Made by a program: the position numbers and the translations under genes. The notes below the pieces were generated by a model. The model was not told where the DNA came from. It worked only from the letters and a program-made list of their open reading frames with translations, and made no database searches. From the NCBI GenBank assembly GCA_029856685.1, contig JAHKKZ010000007.1, forward strand, positions 1-39,534: a stretch of 39,534 bases of DNA, given 5' to 3'. This stretch comes from Candidatus Njordarchaeota archaeon. Its GTDB lineage: Archaea > Asgardarchaeota > Njordarchaeia > Njordarchaeales > Panguiarchaeaceae. This document shows, one piece after another, positions 2,670-29,643 of the stretch (position 1 is its first letter; every line of letters begins with the position of its first letter).

Positions 2670-3443
2670 TCATCGTTGACAATAGTCACAGACAAATGTT
2701 TTTCTTCCATTTGGCTTCTGATAATAGAGTCTTATTGGCCTTCCACATCGTGGACAGGGCTTCCTAGCCTTATTGTAGACCATGAGTAGCGGCGCTATTC
2801 TTTTTCTTTCAATCTTCCGCCTAAAGAATTCCCAGGAGAGCTCCCAGGCATACCTAGCTATCCTCTCCACTTCTTTTTGGGAGAGATCTTTGACCAATCT
2901 CTCTGGATGTATCTTTGCTCTAAAGAGAATTTCATTCCTTAAGATATTGCCTATGCCTGCGATAACCCTTTGATCCAACAACACATCTCCTATCTTCCTA
3001 TCCCCATGGCGCCTAATAAGCATAACAGCTTTTTCAACACTCCAATCGTCTCTCAGAGGATCTACCCCAAGGGTTCTCTTCAGTTTGTCGAGTATTCGCC
3101 ACTTGTAGTCTATCTCGACAATAGGAGCATTGTATATGACAACTTTTTTAGACTCAAAGATCAGCATTAACCTCATTTTTGATTCTGGCTTCGTTAATGA
3201 TTCATCAAAATCATAGATATGTATAGTGCCGTACATCATCAGATGCGTCCTAACCATATAGTCCCCAAAAACAAACAGAATATTCTTTCCATACGCATCA
3301 GCGTAATCCAATCTAAGTCCAACAAGATTTCCAACATCAATATTGCTACGACCGCTCCTCATGATAGCTTCCGTAACGACCTCATCTCCAACCATCCTTT
3401 TCACAATTACTGCTTTTGCCTTCGCCGTTGGACCCTCAGTCAT
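2670..3443 (-). CDS. Fpg/Nei (formamidopyrimidine/endonuclease VIII)-family DNA glycosylase with Thr at position 2
   Basis: The protein is a full-length Fpg/Nei-family base-excision enzyme of 257 residues. It shows the N-terminal TEGP motif with the catalytic Glu3, Lys53 in YGKNILF, and HLMMYG, equivalent to the HLGMTG loop. It also has the helix-two-turns-helix motif GIGNILRNE with Asn166, and a C-terminal zinc finger of Cys230, Cys233, Cys252 and Cys255 that carries Arg247 in GRKTF. In the family the N-terminal Pro, exposed after Met removal, is the Schiff-base nucleophile; here that residue is Thr. NEIL3 of animals has Val there and still acts on DNA, so activity is possible. Fpg/Nei proteins are uncommon in thermophilic archaea, so lateral acquisition is likely. 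The gene is convergent with the acidic micro-protein and divergent from the ATP-cone gene. Confidence 0.88.
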   Translation of the reverse strand: MTEGPTAKAKAVIVKRMVGDEVVTEAIMRSGRSNIDVGNLVGLRLDYADAYGKNILFVFGDYMVRTHLMMYGTIHIYDFDESLTKPESKMRLMLIFESKKVVIYNAPIVEIDYKWRILDKLKRTLGVDPLRDDWSVEKAVMLIRRHGDRKIGDVLLDQRVIAGIGNILRNEILFRAKIHPERLVKDLSQKEVERIARYAWELSWEFFRRKIERKRIAPLLMVYNKARKPCPRCGRPIRLYYQKPNGRKTFVCDYCQR

Positions 3444-6693: not shown

Positions 6694-6820
6694 AACAGGT
6701 ACTCTGCGCAGACTGACCACCAACGATCATTAGATACTTTGACTTAAAATCCATTTTGGATTGCTATATTAGCTAAGAAACATAAAAATTTGTATCATAT
6801 GAAGCGTCTAGGTGCTCTTA

Positions 6821-7597
6821 TTGTCACTTTTAAATGAGCTCATCGAGAAGCTTAAATGTTTTACTGTAGATGATACCTTACATTTCGAGGAGATGTTTGA
6901 TGAGCAGTTCCACGCACTTAAGTATCTCCATAGCAAATCCATTAACGATGCTGTCTTCCTTAGCCTAGTAGTTCTAAATGCTCTGATTAGCTATCAGCTT
7001 AGCTGTTCTGGTGAAAGATACTGGTGGGAATTCGCTAGGTATTTCTCTAATATGAAGAATATACAATTCGAAAACATCCCAGAAGTTTTCATAGAATTTT
7101 TAAGTAAAACGACGTGTGGTCGCCGACTGAGATCCCAGAAAATATCTAGGATTAGGCGGGCTTGGAATGTAGTAAAGCAATACGCAACTCGTATAGACTG
7201 GCTTATAAAGAACCAGAAAACTTTTTCACTAAAGCTTGCTAGGGCTCTTAACTCGGCAGCTTCGGCTAAGACAATAGTTTTTTCTGTGAAGATGCTGAAC
7301 TATGCTCTCCGGATAGTGACTAAGCGCAAAATCATTTCTCCGATGAGTGTTGATATTCCGCTTGACTCTCGGATAAGGACGATATCTAAAGTACTCGGTG
7401 TCGAAAATTCTTTGGAGTTCTGGAGAATGACTTCTCGGAGATTAGGAATACCTCCTCTCCATCTGGATTCTCTTCTTTGGATAGGATTCCGCCTAGCAGA
7501 CCACATAGAGGACATAAGCAAGTTTTTGGAGGATCGAAGAATAGTTGAGTTCTTAATGGTTATGAGGAAAATTAAGCAGTCACTTAGTCATAGGTAG
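6821..7597 (+). CDS. AGOG-type archaeal 8-oxoguanine DNA glycosylase/lyase
   Basis: The protein matches the archaeal AGOG family of the helix-hairpin-helix-GPD superfamily, which excises 8-oxoguanine and cleaves the abasic site. Visible landmarks are LNALISYQLSCSGERYWWEFARYFS, AKTIVFSVKMLNYAL, VDIPLDSRI and GIPPLHLDSLLW. The Lys of AKTIVF (Lys150 from the chosen start) and the Asp of PLDSRI (Asp182) are 32 residues apart. That is the spacing of the catalytic Lys140/Asp172 pair known in Pyrobaculum AGOG. Its 258 residues are normal for the family. GTG 6812 is in the track, but it is part of a GGTG motif 6 bases before TTG 6821, which I prefer. The 3' end overlaps moaE convergently by 14 bases. 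Confidence 0.9.
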   Translation: MSLLNELIEKLKCFTVDDTLHFEEMFDEQFHALKYLHSKSINDAVFLSLVVLNALISYQLSCSGERYWWEFARYFSNMKNIQFENIPEVFIEFLSKTTCGRRLRSQKISRIRRAWNVVKQYATRIDWLIKNQKTFSLKLARALNSAASAKTIVFSVKMLNYALRIVTKRKIISPMSVDIPLDSRIRTISKVLGVENSLEFWRMTSRRLGIPPLHLDSLLWIGFRLADHIEDISKFLEDRRIVEFLMVMRKIKQSLSHR

Positions 7598-16524: not shown

Positions 16525-18228
16525 TTGCATATATTTAAAAAACTTATTCCCGTCGAGGAGGCACAGAGAATCCTCATTTCCTATGCACGGGAAGTCAAAG
16601 AATGCGAAGAGGTAGATATTGACAACGCGTTAGGTCGTGTAGTTGCTGAGGACATCTATGCTGGGATTGATATTCCAGGTTTTGATAGAGCGACGAGAGA
16701 CGGATATGCAGTTATCGCTGAGGACACATATGCGGCTTCTGAGAGAACACCTATTAAACTTCAACTACGGGGCTATATTAAGACAGGTTCATATCCTAAA
16801 AATATCCTAACACATGGTGAGGCGTTTAGAATAGATACTGGGGCTTCTCTGCCTAGGGGAGCAAATGCTATTGTCCCCATAGAGTATACTAGTGAAGAAA
16901 ATGGATACGTCATAATCTTTCGTAGAGTCTCTCCTTGGGCAAATATTCAGTGGGCAGGTGCAGATATCGCTCGTGGTGAGATAATAGTTCAGAGGGGAAC
17001 AATAATAACTCCTCGTCATATAGGAGCACTAGCTGGTATTGGATACCCAAGGATCAAAGTTAGGAGAAAACCCAAAGTGGCCGTCTTCTCGATTGGGGAT
17101 GAATTGATAAGTGTCGACTCAAAACTTACTCCAGGCAAAATATATGACATAAACATTCATACGCTGACATCTCTAATTAGAAAATCTGGTGGCGAACCTG
17201 TTGTTCTTGGCATAGCAAAGGATAGCACCGAGTCTATACTAAAAAAACTGAAGGAGGGTTTAGAAGTAGCAGATATCATTATCTCATCAGGAGGCTCGTC
17301 TGTAGGCCAATCCGATTTTATCCGAGCAGCTGTGGAGGAGCTGGGGGCTGAAGTTCTTTTCCACGGAGTTATGAGTAAGCCTGGGAAGCCCGTTCTAGGG
17401 AGCAGGATCGGTGATAAACTCTATATAGGTCTTCCTGGAAATCCAGCTTCAGCTATTCTGAGCTTCATTCTCTATGTGAAGCCTGTTATCTCCAAGATGC
17501 TGGGAATAAAGCCTACTCATAGAACCCCAGGAGGACTTGTGCTGAAGAGGCGAGAGTATGGTGTTAAGGGCCGAAGACTCTATAAAACTATCGCTATTAA
17601 GAGGAGGAATAGTGATTATGTCTATGAGTCGCTCCCAGCATCCTCAGAGTCTATATCTACATTATCAAAAGCTGATGCGTACTTTATCATACCAGAGGAT
17701 ACAGAGTTCATTGATTCTGGGATTGCGGTAAATCTAAGCTTCTTTGATGCTCAACCACAACTAGCTGGCATATTCATTGTTGGGGAGTACTCACCCAGTA
17801 TTCTCAGATCCATAATATCCATAATTGGAGACAAATACTTAGTTAGATATATCCGGAGAGACTATGAAGCAACCTTGCTTGCTGTCGAAGAAGGAGTCGC
17901 TGATATTGCCATATTCACAAAAGAAGTGAAAAACTCAATAAGACTAACCCGTAAAATCGCCCTTGCAGGAGATGCATCACGAGGAGACATTGTTACTGCG
18001 ATGAGAAATATCGAGGGAGAGAGAATCATAGTTGTTGGCTCTCATCAATCTGCTATACTAAGATATCTCAACGGTCTTGCGGAAGCTGTCATTGCGCCTA
18101 AGGAGCTTTTAGATTTATATGGTGTTGAGGAATATAGAATAATAGGTCAAGAACCCCTCTACATATACGCCTCTAGAGATCTGTCTGAGATTATAAGAAA
18201 TGTTCTGAAGAATCTAAGTAATCTCTGA
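16525..18228 (+). CDS. moeA: MoeA molybdopterin molybdotransferase with a C-terminal PBP-like domain
   Basis: MoeA inserts Mo or W into adenylylated molybdopterin. Residues 1-410 carry the family blocks: PGFDRATRDGYAV, VFSIGDEL, GGSSVGQSDFI, HGVMSKPGKPVLG and GLPGNPASAILSF. From about residue 420 a segment of about 145 residues (AGIFIVGEYSPSILRSII, VEEGVADIAIF, ALAGDASRGDIV, IIVVGSHQS, EAVIAPKELLDLYG) resembles the periplasmic-binding/LysR-type domain often fused to archaeal MoeA, but it is shorter than the usual ~220 residues. The start is TTG 16525, 6 bases after GGTGA. In FDRATRDGYA an Arg replaces the usual Met/Ala. The gene end overlaps the LRR gene convergently by 15 bases. A second moeA lies 10 kb away. 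Confidence 0.92.
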   Translation: MHIFKKLIPVEEAQRILISYAREVKECEEVDIDNALGRVVAEDIYAGIDIPGFDRATRDGYAVIAEDTYAASERTPIKLQLRGYIKTGSYPKNILTHGEAFRIDTGASLPRGANAIVPIEYTSEENGYVIIFRRVSPWANIQWAGADIARGEIIVQRGTIITPRHIGALAGIGYPRIKVRRKPKVAVFSIGDELISVDSKLTPGKIYDINIHTLTSLIRKSGGEPVVLGIAKDSTESILKKLKEGLEVADIIISSGGSSVGQSDFIRAAVEELGAEVLFHGVMSKPGKPVLGSRIGDKLYIGLPGNPASAILSFILYVKPVISKMLGIKPTHRTPGGLVLKRREYGVKGRRLYKTIAIKRRNSDYVYESLPASSESISTLSKADAYFIIPEDTEFIDSGIAVNLSFFDAQPQLAGIFIVGEYSPSILRSIISIIGDKYLVRYIRRDYEATLLAVEEGVADIAIFTKEVKNSIRLTRKIALAGDASRGDIVTAMRNIEGERIIVVGSHQSAILRYLNGLAEAVIAPKELLDLYGVEEYRIIGQEPLYIYASRDLSEIIRNVLKNLSNL

Positions 18229-19446
18229 GTCATGTTCTTCGATAATCTCCTCTAGGGTTTTCATCAAAACATTCACGCCTAATCTCTTAAGCTTGGCTAT
18301 CTGCTCAGTAGGAACATCACAACCACTAATATCCACGACTTTAAGTCTCCTAAACCGTTTTACTAGCCGTATTACCGGTGTTAGGTCATGGATAGGTGTT
18401 CCATCCAAATATAGCCTCTCGAGCGACTGGAGTTTTTCTACTACGGATATATCATAGATAAAGCAACTTGATATGTCGAGAACCCTAAGAGCTTTTAATG
18501 CGGCTAGATCTGATATGTCCTCGACAAGAGTGCTACTTACATCAAGTATTTCGAGACCCATAAGATTTCCTATCTCACTAAGCCTATCAATTCCTGTATT
18601 GGAGAGATTCAGCACCCTTAGTGATTTTAGTTTACTAAGAAACTCTGTCTCATATATGTTTGTGTTTCCGAGGTCAAGAACCTCAAGATACTTCAGATGT
18701 TCTATAGGTCTGGGATTCTGCATCGCCGTTGCATTGAGACTAAGTTCTCTGAGAAATCGCAACTCTTTGATAAAACCTATTTCTGAGACCTGAGTGTTAT
18801 TTATGTGAAGTACCCTTAGGTTTTTTAGTTGTGAGAGAGCACCACAATCATATATCTTTGTTGCGCTAAGGATTAGACGGCTAAGTTTTCTTAGTCCACC
18901 AAGCAGTTCGCATTCTGAGAATTGCGTTCCACCCAAATTGAGTATTTCCAGATTCCTTAGCTTGGATAATGTTCGGAAATCACCTATAATTCTTGCAAAC
19001 CAGAGACTAAGTTTTCGAAGCTTTCTTAGCCTACTGAGAGGCGATATGTTCTCTATGTATGTCTTATCTAGGATTAACTCCTCAAGCTCCCTAAGACTTG
19101 AGATCGGATCTATTTTCTCAACATTCACACAGCCCCTCAATGAGAGTTTCCTCAGCTTCTTAAGATGTTTGAGGGGGCTGAGATCCGCTATTTTTGTGTA
19201 GGATAGATCAAGCTCCATGAGGTTCCTAAGATTTTTCAATGGGTCTAAGCTCTCTATGCGCTTACAGTTACGCAGTGAGAGCCACCGTAGGCTTCTAAAT
19301 CCCGATATTGGTTCTAGATTCTGTATGGGAGTATCACTAAGATCCATACCTACTATCTTGCCATTCTCTATCTCGCAATATATGTTTTTGCCTAACTCCT
19401 TGGATAATAAATCCACAATTTGGATTTGGGGCTGTTTCTGATTCAA
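18214..19446 (-). CDS. Leucine-rich-repeat protein (SDS22/internalin-like repeats)
   Basis: About 14 tandem repeats of 22-23 residues cover nearly the entire protein. The consensus is LRxLRxLxLxxTxIxDxxPLxxL, as in NLMELDLSYTKIADLSPL, LRVLHINNTQVSEIGFI, YLEVLDLGNTNIYETEFL and ALRVLDISSCFIYDISVV. This is the 22-residue LRR class seen in SDS22 and internalins. There is no signal peptide or membrane segment, so it should be a cytosolic protein-binding scaffold. The first 40 residues (VDLLSKELGKNIYCEI) form a cap. The chosen TTG start at 19446 lies 7 bases after GGTG; the track start is GTG 19458. Long LRR proteins are uncommon in thermophilic archaea. The partner is unknown. Confidence 0.88.
   Translation of the reverse strand: MNQKQPQIQIVDLLSKELGKNIYCEIENGKIVGMDLSDTPIQNLEPISGFRSLRWLSLRNCKRIESLDPLKNLRNLMELDLSYTKIADLSPLKHLKKLRKLSLRGCVNVEKIDPISSLRELEELILDKTYIENISPLSRLRKLRKLSLWFARIIGDFRTLSKLRNLEILNLGGTQFSECELLGGLRKLSRLILSATKIYDCGALSQLKNLRVLHINNTQVSEIGFIKELRFLRELSLNATAMQNPRPIEHLKYLEVLDLGNTNIYETEFLSKLKSLRVLNLSNTGIDRLSEIGNLMGLEILDVSSTLVEDISDLAALKALRVLDISSCFIYDISVVEKLQSLERLYLDGTPIHDLTPVIRLVKRFRRLKVVDISGCDVPTEQIAKLKRLGVNVLMKTLEEIIEEHDSEIT
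18290..19400 (-). repeat. Imperfect ~66-69 bp tandem repeats encoding the LRRs
   Basis: The protein periodicity is mirrored in the DNA, with recurring minus-strand AGxxTTAGG / CTAAGxxT blocks every 66-69 bases. The copies have diverged in sequence, which points to old duplication with maintained protein structure rather than recent slippage. Confidence 0.55.
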
Positions 19447-19460
19447 AATTAGCACCACTT

Positions 19461-21937: not shown

Positions 21938-22933
21938 TTACTGCTTCTTCTTTTTAGCTTTTTTCCTCTTTGTCTTCTTTCGTTTTCGCTTCCTCTTCTT
22001 AGCTGCTTTCTTAGGAACTTTCTTCGCTACTGGCGCTTTTTTACGAACCTTCTTAATAATCTCGATAGGTTTCTCAACAACGATAGGCTCCATAAGACCT
22101 TCTCTAATCAATATGTCTCTCATTAGCAACGCGTCGCGCTCAAGTATTGGGCTTTCAGAAACTATCTGAACCTCATCAAAATTGAATTCTTTGAGGGCCT
22201 CAACAAAATTTTCAAACATAGGCTCATGGGCTTCCAAAGCTAGATGGGCTCTCTCACCCTTATCCGTATACTCTATACATGAGAAGTGGATATGAATTAT
22301 CTTGATAGGCCTTCTCGAAATAAACTCATAGTAGCGGCTGAGAAGATTCTTAAAATCATCAACGGTTCTAAGAGCACCACCTTCCCTAGCATGTATATGT
22401 GCGAAGTCGATACATGGGATCAGCCTAAGATTGTCTATCTCCTCCACAAGCCTTATAAGCTCATCAAAACTTCCAAACTGACCCTTCTTCCCCGTGGTCT
22501 CTGGGCATATGTATACGTCCTCAAAATCGCTTGTTAGGTCAAGAACCCTGATAAGATTATTCTTAACAATCCTATATGTCTCCTCGGGGGACTTACCACC
22601 GTAGGTAGCAGGATGAAAAACAACACACCTAGCACCCATAATCGAGGCAAGCTTAGCAGACTCATAAATCCACTCCCTGACAGACCTCTCAACAATCGTA
22701 GGGTTATTCGAAGCCAAATTCACATAGTAGGGAGCATGAACAGTAAGCCTAACACCAAGCTCGCTTGCAAGCTCAGCAACCTGCAACGCAACTTCTTCTT
22801 TCATCTTTACTCCACGGACAAACTGCACCTCCATCAAGTTAAGTCCAAGATTATACACACACTTAATACCACTAATCGTATCCTTTTTAGGACAAGAAAT
22901 AGGGACACCAGCAGGCCCAACGTATATCCGCAT
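21938..22933 (-). CDS. nfo: Endonuclease IV (AP endonuclease)-type TIM-barrel protein with Lys/Arg-rich tail
   Basis: Residues 1-275 match the deoxyribonuclease IV family. Blocks seen are LMEVQFVRG, LTVHAPYYVNLAS, VVFHPATYGGKSPEE, ICPETTGKKGQFGS, IDFAHIHARE, IHIHFSCIEYTDKGERAHLAL and VSESP. They contain the His, Glu and Asp ligands of the three-zinc site. Endonuclease IV cuts 5' to abasic sites, the step after AGOG or Nei action. The last ~45 residues are an extraordinary basic tail (KKRKRKRKKTKRKKAKKKKQ), likely non-specific DNA binding. The start at ATG 22933 follows GGGGGGTGG, so the track start at 22957 is too long. It heads the operon nfo-ribH-mazG-ykgJ. Confidence 0.85.
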   Translation of the reverse strand: MRIYVGPAGVPISCPKKDTISGIKCVYNLGLNLMEVQFVRGVKMKEEVALQVAELASELGVRLTVHAPYYVNLASNNPTIVERSVREWIYESAKLASIMGARCVVFHPATYGGKSPEETYRIVKNNLIRVLDLTSDFEDVYICPETTGKKGQFGSFDELIRLVEEIDNLRLIPCIDFAHIHAREGGALRTVDDFKNLLSRYYEFISRRPIKIIHIHFSCIEYTDKGERAHLALEAHEPMFENFVEALKEFNFDEVQIVSESPILERDALLMRDILIREGLMEPIVVEKPIEIIKKVRKKAPVAKKVPKKAAKKRKRKRKKTKRKKAKKKKQ

Positions 22934-23005
22934 AGTAACCACCCCCCGAAAAACCAAACATGAAAAATAACCATCATAAATAAAAAACCAAATGCATTGG
23001 CACCA

Positions 23006-28398: not shown

Positions 28399-29643
28399 CT
28401 AAACTGTGGAGACATCCCGTATAAGTATAACTTCAACTTCTTTCCCTTCCTCGATACCTTCAGAGCCTTCTGGAACTTCTACGATTCCATCACTCATCAC
28501 CACTGATGATAGTACCCCCGAACCTGCGATCATTATCGGTTCCGCAACTATCATACTGTTTTTTCTTATGAGTTTCACCCTGACATATGTTCTTATACCT
28601 GGCTTTGACCAGATTCGCCTACCCAGAACAGCTCTTATTGTACTATGTCTAAATCTTCCCCTAATACTACTGATCCTCTCAATAGCTCTTAGCAGTATTG
28701 TTCTCACCGCGATGAATGTCGCGACTGGCAGACCAGGTAGACCTAATATTGGTAGCCTACCTATCTTACCTGCGCATATTGGCTTTCCCGGCTCAATAGC
28801 AACTCCATGAAAGATTAGTTCTCCGTATTTTCTGATTATGTGTGGTATTAGATCATGTTTTCCTACGCTTGTCCCACCCACAGTTATCAGCATATCTATC
28901 TGTGTTTGGGCTAACTGTATTTTTTTAAGAATCTCCTGCTCAGAATCTGGAGATATTCCGAAGTCTATCACCTCAGCTCCAAGTTTCTTAGAATACCCAA
29001 TTACTATCTCTCTGCTATACTCTAATATTTTTCCTGGTCCTAGCTCCTCGGGGTCATCTACAAGCTCGCTTCCACACGCCATAACAGCTATTCTGGGTCT
29101 CCGGAGAACTTCGACATATCTCATGCCTAGAGCTTTCATAATTGCGATATCTTCGGGGGCAATTAGTCTTCCTGCCCGAAGAACCTTGGTTCCTTTACTG
29201 ATATCTTCGCCTCTTCTAGATATGTTATCACCCGGAGCAAACGATTTTCTAACAAATATTTCGTCATCGACAACATCTACATACTCAATAGGAACAACAA
29301 CGTCCGCACCTATAGGTATTTTCGATCCAGTATGCACGTACACTGCTTCCCCCACAGATACTTTTCCTTCGAATGGTTTTCCTATTTCCGAAATACCAAT
29401 AACCCTAAGAACCTTAGGATTTTCGGGATCCGCATCATAGATATCCTCAGCCCTAGTGGCATAACCATCCATAGCAGCTCTATCGAACGGAGGAATATCC
29501 GCCTCTGCTACCACATCTCTCGCTAAAACCCTATCTAGGGATTCCCTAATGTGTATTTTCTCGGTTTCTTTGATGGGTTCTAGAATCCCAACAAACCTAT
29601 TGATAGCTTCATCTAGCCTGATAAGCTTTCTAAATCCATGCAT
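28399..29643 (-). CDS. moeA: MoeA molybdopterin molybdotransferase, single-unit form
   Basis: A 414-residue MoeA with the domain order and motifs IPPFDRAAMDGYATRAEDIY, VHTGSKIPIGADVVVPIEYV, VGGTSVGKHDLI, FHGVAIEPGKPICAG and GLPGLPVATFI, and the C-terminal MoeA_C beta domain (GVLSSVVMSDGIVEVPEG). It lacks the PBP-like tail of the other copy. Two MoeA proteins are common where both Mo and W are used or where the enzymes are specialised, but neither copy's metal can be told from sequence. The start is ATG 29643 after GGTGGTAATC. It ends a minus-strand run with the deacetylase-like and longin-like genes, spaced by about 120 bases. Confidence 0.93.
   Translation of the reverse strand: MHGFRKLIRLDEAINRFVGILEPIKETEKIHIRESLDRVLARDVVAEADIPPFDRAAMDGYATRAEDIYDADPENPKVLRVIGISEIGKPFEGKVSVGEAVYVHTGSKIPIGADVVVPIEYVDVVDDEIFVRKSFAPGDNISRRGEDISKGTKVLRAGRLIAPEDIAIMKALGMRYVEVLRRPRIAVMACGSELVDDPEELGPGKILEYSREIVIGYSKKLGAEVIDFGISPDSEQEILKKIQLAQTQIDMLITVGGTSVGKHDLIPHIIRKYGELIFHGVAIEPGKPICAGKIGRLPILGLPGLPVATFIAVRTILLRAIERISSIRGRFRHSTIRAVLGRRIWSKPGIRTYVRVKLIRKNSMIVAEPIMIAGSGVLSSVVMSDGIVEVPEGSEGIEEGKEVEVILIRDVSTV

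What the first reader, a model, noticed from the sequence alone, without database searches (positions are those of the whole stretch)
2670..3443. Nei-like glycosylase with Thr instead of the catalytic N-terminal Pro
All other hallmarks are kept (Glu3, Lys53, His67, Asn166, four zinc Cys, Arg247), but the residue exposed after Met removal is Thr. In the family this amine is the Schiff-base nucleophile; animal NEIL3 tolerates Val. A Thr form could be monofunctional, have altered lyase activity or prefer single-stranded or structured DNA. The family is rare in thermophilic archaea.
Basis: partly seen in the sequence, partly recalled or inferred. Interest (0 to 1): 0.6.

Follow-up and report, generated by a model that had tools for sequence, protein, structure and literature searches.

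The report
Archaeal NEIL-like glycosylase lacking catalytic proline
This archaeal DNA-repair enzyme belongs to a family that normally attacks damaged DNA with a proline at its very first position, but here, and in all 27 close archaeal relatives read, that proline is replaced by threonine or valine; in related enzymes the same change largely separates base removal from strand cutting.

Summary
Window 2670-3443 (-) is an intact 257-aa Fpg/Nei-family (H2TH) DNA glycosylase starting MTEGP, with every other catalytic residue kept. The start is secure: there is no upstream in-frame ATG/GTG/TTG, and relatives start at the same codon with ATG, GTG or TTG. Thr is not a one-off. The 27 clade members with a readable N-terminus (5 Njordarchaeales including the window, plus Bathyarchaeia and other Thermoproteota) have Thr (6) or its isostere Val (21), never Pro, with varied codons and dN/dS of 0.09-0.17. 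The other Asgard and bathyarchaeal Fpg/Nei genes read have Pro. On a tree built without residues 1-2, the clade is supported (100/98) and groups (99/96) with mammalian NEIL3 (Val2), NEIL2 (Pro2) and an unnamed 'MEGP' group. Published P2T, P2A and V2P variants of Nei, NEIL1, Nei2 and NEIL3 suggest the likeliest mechanism: Thr2's free primary amine still serves as nucleophile, but strand cutting is weak, so the enzyme acts mainly as a monofunctional glycosylase. No activity was measured and the substrate is unknown. Verdict: new variant of a known kind.

The parts
2670..3443 (-). Fpg/Nei-family (H2TH) DNA glycosylase, 257 aa, N-terminus MTEGPTA (stop codon at 2670-2672)
   Evidence: AlphaFold2 model pLDDT 88.2, pTM 0.84; Foldseek top hits mouse NEIL3, then Fpg and Nei, TM-score 0.81-0.88
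3438..3440 (-). codon 2, ACT = Thr, at the position of the Schiff-base Pro nucleophile; expected N-terminus after Met removal
   Evidence: Met removal before Thr/Val/Pro in archaea: PMC2946573
3435..3437 (-). codon 3, Glu3 (general acid/O4' contact in the family)
   Evidence: conserved in 72/72 aligned rows
3285..3287 (-). Lys53 (conserved catalytic/phosphate-binding Lys; Nei2 Lys51, NEIL3 Lys81)
   Evidence: conserved in 72/72 aligned rows
3231..3239 (-). Met69-Met70-Tyr71, at the Gln-Leu-Tyr (QLY) loop of E. coli-type Nei
   Evidence: alignment
2928..2957 (-). H2TH motif GIGNILRNEI (residues 163-172); GNI[IL][KR]NE is shared with NEIL3, NEIL2 and nearly all of the MEGP group
   Evidence: Pfam H2TH
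2676..2756 (-). beta-hairpin zinc finger, Cys230, Cys233, Cys252, Cys255, with Arg247

Best explanation
It is an active H2TH DNA glycosylase of a so far unnamed archaeal 'Thr/Val' clade, on the NEIL2/NEIL3 side of the Fpg/Nei family. After methionine aminopeptidase exposes Thr2, its free primary alpha-amine takes the place of Pro: with Glu3, Lys53 and Arg247 it attacks C1' of a flipped-out damaged nucleotide and expels the base. The beta-branched primary amine (Thr, or its isostere Val in most relatives) makes the following beta/delta-elimination slow, so the enzyme behaves mainly as a monofunctional glycosylase, like NEIL3, and hands an AP site to a separate AP endonuclease. The likeliest substrates are oxidised pyrimidines or hydantoins, with 8-oxoG left to AGOG, encoded in the same window. 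Shown here: family, residues, start, clade-wide Thr/Val, purifying selection, tree position; the fold is a confident prediction. Inferred from relatives and published mutants: nucleophile role, weak lyase, substrate.
For: Other catalytic positions invariant in 26 clade members; residue 2 is Thr 6/Val 20 in these, and Val again in the truncated 27th; synonymous codon variety (ACT/ACA/ACG, GTT/GTC/GTA) and dN/dS 0.09-0.17 indicate selection on the residue. Model has the family fold; best PDB sequence hits are NEIL3 and the best Foldseek hit by E-value is NEIL3. Tree: clade 100/98; clade + MEGP + NEIL3 + NEIL2 99/96, still joined to MEGP without the NEILs (SH-aLRT 93). NEIL3 with Val2 is essentially monofunctional and V2P restores coupled incision (PMC5727206). 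NEIL1 P2T keeps weak 5-OHC glycosylase and loses nearly all lyase, said to match E. coli Nei (PMC5566547). Fpg P2T keeps about 10% activity (PMC10164570). M. smegmatis Nei2 P2A loses AP lyase but keeps 5-OHU glycosylase and psoralen resistance in vivo (PMC11323726). Archaeal Met removal allows Thr and Val; reported archaeal N-acetylation is at Ser/Ala and is disfavoured by Glu at position 3, so the amine should be free (PMC2946573). No long Fpg-type insertion between H2TH and zinc finger; AGOG at 6812-7597.
Against: No activity was measured. Engineered P2T in Nei and NEIL1 impairs glycosylase as well as lyase, so activity needs compensating changes that were not identified. Nei2 P2C complements without detectable 5-OHU glycosylase, so glycosylase activity and in vivo role do not map simply. 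The genome (79% complete) shows no ExoIII-type AP endonuclease and only a sub-threshold EndoIV-like gene, so the downstream enzyme is uncertain. The superclade rests on one NEIL3, one NEIL2 and few bacterial sequences, several of them long branches.
Confidence: 0.6

Rival explanations
1. Fully bifunctional glycosylase/lyase: the archaeal active site is tuned so that a Thr/Val primary amine drives beta (or beta,delta) elimination as well as Pro does in Nei.
For: All lyase-relevant residues other than Pro (Lys53, Arg247) are invariant; P2T mutants of other family members lack the co-evolved context of a natural Thr enzyme.
Against: Published P2T, P2A and P2C variants of family members lose most lyase activity, and the natural Val enzyme NEIL3 is weak in it.
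Confidence: 0.22
2. A dedicated NEIL3-type unhooking enzyme for interstrand crosslinks (AP-site or bulky-adduct) at forks or in single-stranded DNA, where not cutting the strand is the point.
For: Groups with NEIL3/NEIL2; lyase-dead Nei2 P2A still protects from psoralen; NEIL3 resolves crosslinks (PMC5727206).
Against: No conserved partner gene: no neighbour family is shared by more than 3 of the 24 loci compared. The Met-Met-Tyr/Phe loop is bulkier than NEIL3's Gly-Met-Lys. No substrate data. It overlaps with the best explanation.
Confidence: 0.12
3. An AP-site capture or shielding protein: Thr2 forms a Schiff base with AP sites, does not eliminate, and protects them in the manner of HMCES/YedK.
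For: From memory of the literature, E. coli Nei P2T forms Schiff bases efficiently yet does not cut (Burgess et al. 2002; not read here).
Against: Glu3, needed for base excision and dispensable for lyase in Nei2, is invariant; Nei2 P2A trapped little AP-DNA (6.1%); no thiol for a thiazolidine.
Confidence: 0.04
4. Artefact: wrong start, sequencing error, or decaying gene.
For: Single MAG contig from an incomplete genome.
Against: Independent genomes agree; no alternative start; dN/dS well below 1 in the clade.
Confidence: 0.01

Closest known systems
NEIL3 (animal Nei-like 3, catalytic domain)
   Same: Non-Pro N-terminal residue (Val2, a Thr isostere); EGP motif; GNI[IL][KR]NE H2TH motif; best PDB sequence hit (74 bits) and top Foldseek hit; joined on the tree.
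   Different: About 26% identity; lacks NEIL3's extra C-terminal zinc-finger domains; has Met-Met-Tyr where NEIL3 has Gly-Met-Lys; an exclusive NEIL3 + archaeal clade is weakly rejected (AU p 0.041).
E. coli endonuclease VIII (Nei)
   Same: Same fold (TM-score 0.87); Glu3, Lys, Asn, Arg, zinc Cys; bulky loop (Gln-Leu-Tyr versus Met-Met-Tyr).
   Different: Nei has Pro2 and Glu6; NCBIfam endonuclease VIII equivalog not reached (89.7 versus 252 bits).
Mycobacterial Nei2
   Same: Similar length and architecture; NF040775 match over full length at 95 bits.
   Different: Pro2; far below the equivalog cut-off (400 bits); actinobacterial Nei2-like proteins (EGD) lie outside the supported clade.
MEGP group (unnamed; in G009, G018, G197, G198, G669)
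   Same: Non-Pro N-terminus and GNIIKNE-type motif; nearest prokaryotic neighbour group on the tree.
   Different: Met1 itself occupies the nucleophile position because Met directly precedes Glu.

Membership tests
Fpg/Nei (H2TH) DNA glycosylase family | H2TH domain and Fapy_DNA_glyco N-terminal domain | tested here: met
   Pfam both above gathering cut-off; model fold matches
Fpg/Nei (H2TH) DNA glycosylase family | Glu3, conserved Lys, Asn of H2TH, zinc-finger Arg | tested here: met
   E3, K53, N166, R247 present and invariant in the clade
Fpg/Nei (H2TH) DNA glycosylase family | N-terminal Pro nucleophile | tested here: not met
   Thr2 here; Thr or Val in all 27 clade members. NEIL3, an accepted member, also lacks it, so membership in the wider family stands, as a variant
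Fpg/Nei (H2TH) DNA glycosylase family | Glycosylase and AP lyase activity | not testable with these tools
   needs purified protein
Fpg/MutM equivalog (TIGR00577) | NCBIfam curated cut-off (203.3 bits) | tested here: not met
   102.3 bits
Endonuclease VIII equivalog (NF007763) | NCBIfam curated cut-off (252 bits) | tested here: not met
   89.7 bits
Nei2 equivalog (NF040775) | NCBIfam curated cut-off (400 bits) | tested here: not met
   95.0 bits
NEIL3 orthologue | Non-Pro (Val) N-terminal residue | tested here: met
   Thr here, Val in most of the clade
NEIL3 orthologue | Exclusive common ancestry with NEIL3 | tested here: not met
   NEIL3 is closer to the MEGP group; AU p 0.041 against an exclusive NEIL3 + archaeal clade
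NEIL3 orthologue | C-terminal extension with extra zinc fingers | tested here: not met
   Protein ends right after the catalytic-domain zinc finger
NEIL3 orthologue | Preference for ssDNA/fork substrates and crosslink unhooking | not testable with these tools
   needs biochemical assay

The most novel reading that the evidence does not exclude
A non-proline N-terminal amine is the ancestral state of the whole NEIL2/NEIL3/MEGP/archaeal branch: NEIL3's Val2 is inherited rather than an animal oddity, NEIL2 regained Pro, and the archaeal Thr/Val enzymes are working NEIL3-like strand-sparing glycosylases, possibly for crosslinks, in Asgard and other archaea.
Probability: 0.12. Interest if true: 0.75.

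Novelty: new variant of a known kind. Interest (0 to 1): 0.5.

Why it matters
A catalytic residue treated as the hallmark of the Fpg/Nei family is absent across a whole archaeal clade, with Thr or Val instead. That makes a textbook question (what a secondary-amine Pro contributes over a primary amine, and whether strand cutting is dispensable) testable on natural enzymes rather than on crippled mutants. It also contradicts a published statement that H2TH glycosylases are missing from Archaea (PMC8307549) and gives NEIL3, treated as the exception, prokaryotic company.

Tried and rejected
Alternative start restoring Pro: none exists. Decay or sequencing error: rejected by independent genomes and dN/dS. 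Conserved gene partner: no neighbour family shared by more than 3 of 24 loci. Virus-borne spread: no relatives in viral contigs; in phage and plasmid records only distant homologues, at most 32% identity in the rows listed. N-terminal acetylation blocking the amine: considered; reported archaeal specificity (Ser/Ala, disfavoured by Glu at position 3) makes it unlikely. 'NEIL3 and the archaeal clade alone share a Val/Thr ancestor': weakly rejected (AU p 0.041); archaeal clade + MEGP + NEIL3 without NEIL2 rejected (AU p 0.008). Scan of viral contigs with the MEGP group found nothing.

Full report
Observation. The minus-strand ORF at 2670-3443 encodes 257 residues, MTEGPTAKAKA...CQR. Pfam recognises the H2TH domain (5.4e-20) and the Fpg/Nei N-terminal domain (3.2e-7) above their cut-offs. 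The frame upstream of the ATG is open for 15 codons and holds no ATG, GTG or TTG, so no alternative common start can supply Pro; a downstream start would delete Glu3.

A clade trait. Related genes from Njordarchaeales (L001, L002, L004, L008) read MTEGP; L003 (Bathyarchaeota) reads MVEGP. Profile searches found 10 loci in 257 genomes of L003's class (one a fragment without N-terminus) and 17 in 398 sampled genomes of its phylum, partly the same genomes. Every member with a readable N-terminus has Val or Thr: 26 rows, Val 20 and Thr 6, plus a C-terminally aberrant MVEGL copy in G402. Start codons vary (ATG 20, GTG 5, TTG 1) and the Thr and Val codons vary synonymously, so the start is pinned and the amino acid, not the DNA word, is kept. 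dN/dS between close pairs is 0.09-0.17. Within Asgard the other Fpg/Nei genes read have Pro (MPEGP or MPELP), apart from the MEGP group described below. The clade scores stand apart: about 460-476 bits against at most 135 for the next Asgard protein.

Place in the family. A maximum-likelihood tree of 72 proteins, with residues 1-2 removed so that the trait could not build the tree, gives the Thr/Val clade 100/98 support and joins it at 99/96 with NEIL3, NEIL2 and five archaeal 'MEGP' proteins, in which Met directly precedes Glu. Without the two long NEIL branches the clade still joins MEGP (SH-aLRT 93). Shared features include GNI[IL][KR]NE in the H2TH region and loss of Glu6. The archaeal clade, MEGP and NEIL3 without NEIL2 are not one clade (AU p 0.008), and an exclusive NEIL3 + archaeal clade is weakly rejected (p 0.041). 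So the tree does not show that Val2 of NEIL3 and Thr/Val2 here are one inheritance. Sampling of bacteria and eukaryotes is thin.

Structure. AlphaFold2 from five sequences gives pLDDT 88.2 and pTM 0.84. Foldseek ranks trapped mouse NEIL3 first by E-value, with Fpg and Nei giving the higher TM-scores, about 0.87. There is no long Fpg-type insertion between H2TH and zinc finger in the alignment; from family knowledge, that loop contacts 8-oxoG in Fpg. The window also encodes an AGOG 8-oxoG glycosylase at 6812-7597. The Met69-Met70-Tyr71 loop resembles Nei (Gln-Leu-Tyr) more than NEIL3 (Gly-Met-Lys), which argues against simply copying NEIL3's ssDNA preference.

Mechanism. Archaeal methionine aminopeptidase removes Met before Gly, Ala, Pro, Val, Ser and Thr, and reported archaeal N-acetylation is at Ser and Ala and is disfavoured by Glu at position three (PMC2946573; mainly haloarchaeal data, not Njordarchaeales). 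A free Thr amine is therefore expected. Published variants: NEIL1 P2T keeps weak 5-OHC glycosylase and almost no lyase, said to match Nei (PMC5566547); Fpg P2T keeps about 10% activity (PMC10164570); Nei2 P2A keeps 5-OHU glycosylase and psoralen resistance but loses AP lyase (PMC11323726); NEIL3 (Val2) is essentially monofunctional and V2P couples excision to incision (PMC5727206). Together these make 'glycosylase yes, lyase weak' the best prediction. That glycosylase activity is fully restored by natural compensation is inference.

Downstream. The genome (79% complete) has no ExoIII-type match and one EndoIV-like TIM barrel below the curated cut-off, at 21938-22957 of this same window. A monofunctional glycosylase would need an AP endonuclease; whether that gene serves is unknown. 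No gene neighbour is conserved across the clade, so this looks like a stand-alone repair gene.

Verdict. Real, well supported, and a new natural variant of a known family rather than a new kind of system. A published review states that H2TH glycosylases are missing from Archaea (PMC8307549); in this data set 113 of 228 Asgard-phylum genomes have a match at E<=1e-12. Many of those are draft assemblies with some contamination, but the Thr/Val clade recurs in many archaeal genomes with mutually closest sequences.

Noticed in passing
L010, L036, L037, L038, L115: A NEIL3-like 'MEGP' group in which Met directly precedes Glu, so Met1 itself should carry the nucleophilic amine; its G009 member scores 124 bits against NEIL3 versus 73 against NEIL2. 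G009 is 12% contaminated.
   Followed up: partly
L117 (G754), L118 (G775): Two Fpg/Nei proteins of the Bathyarchaeota phylum with Ser at position 2 (MSEGPEV), on a different branch next to an E. coli-type Nei.
   Followed up: partly
window 6812-7597 (+): AGOG-type N-glycosylase/DNA lyase (8-oxoG), Pfam 3.2e-59; a second, unrelated base-excision enzyme about 3 kb away.
   Followed up: partly
window 21938-22957 (-): TIM-barrel protein related to endonuclease IV (Nfo 74 bits, below the 129.65 cut-off) with a marginal UvdE match; the genome's best AP-endonuclease candidate.
   Followed up: partly
window 16525-18228 (+) and 28399-29643 (-): Two MoeA-type molybdopterin genes in one window.
   Followed up: no
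window 18214-19458 (-): Leucine-rich-repeat protein (LRR_4 6.7e-45) in an Asgard genome.
   Followed up: no
G402 (L068/L113): Clade copy with MVEGL and an aberrant C-terminus that loses the second half of the zinc finger; possibly decaying.
   Followed up: no
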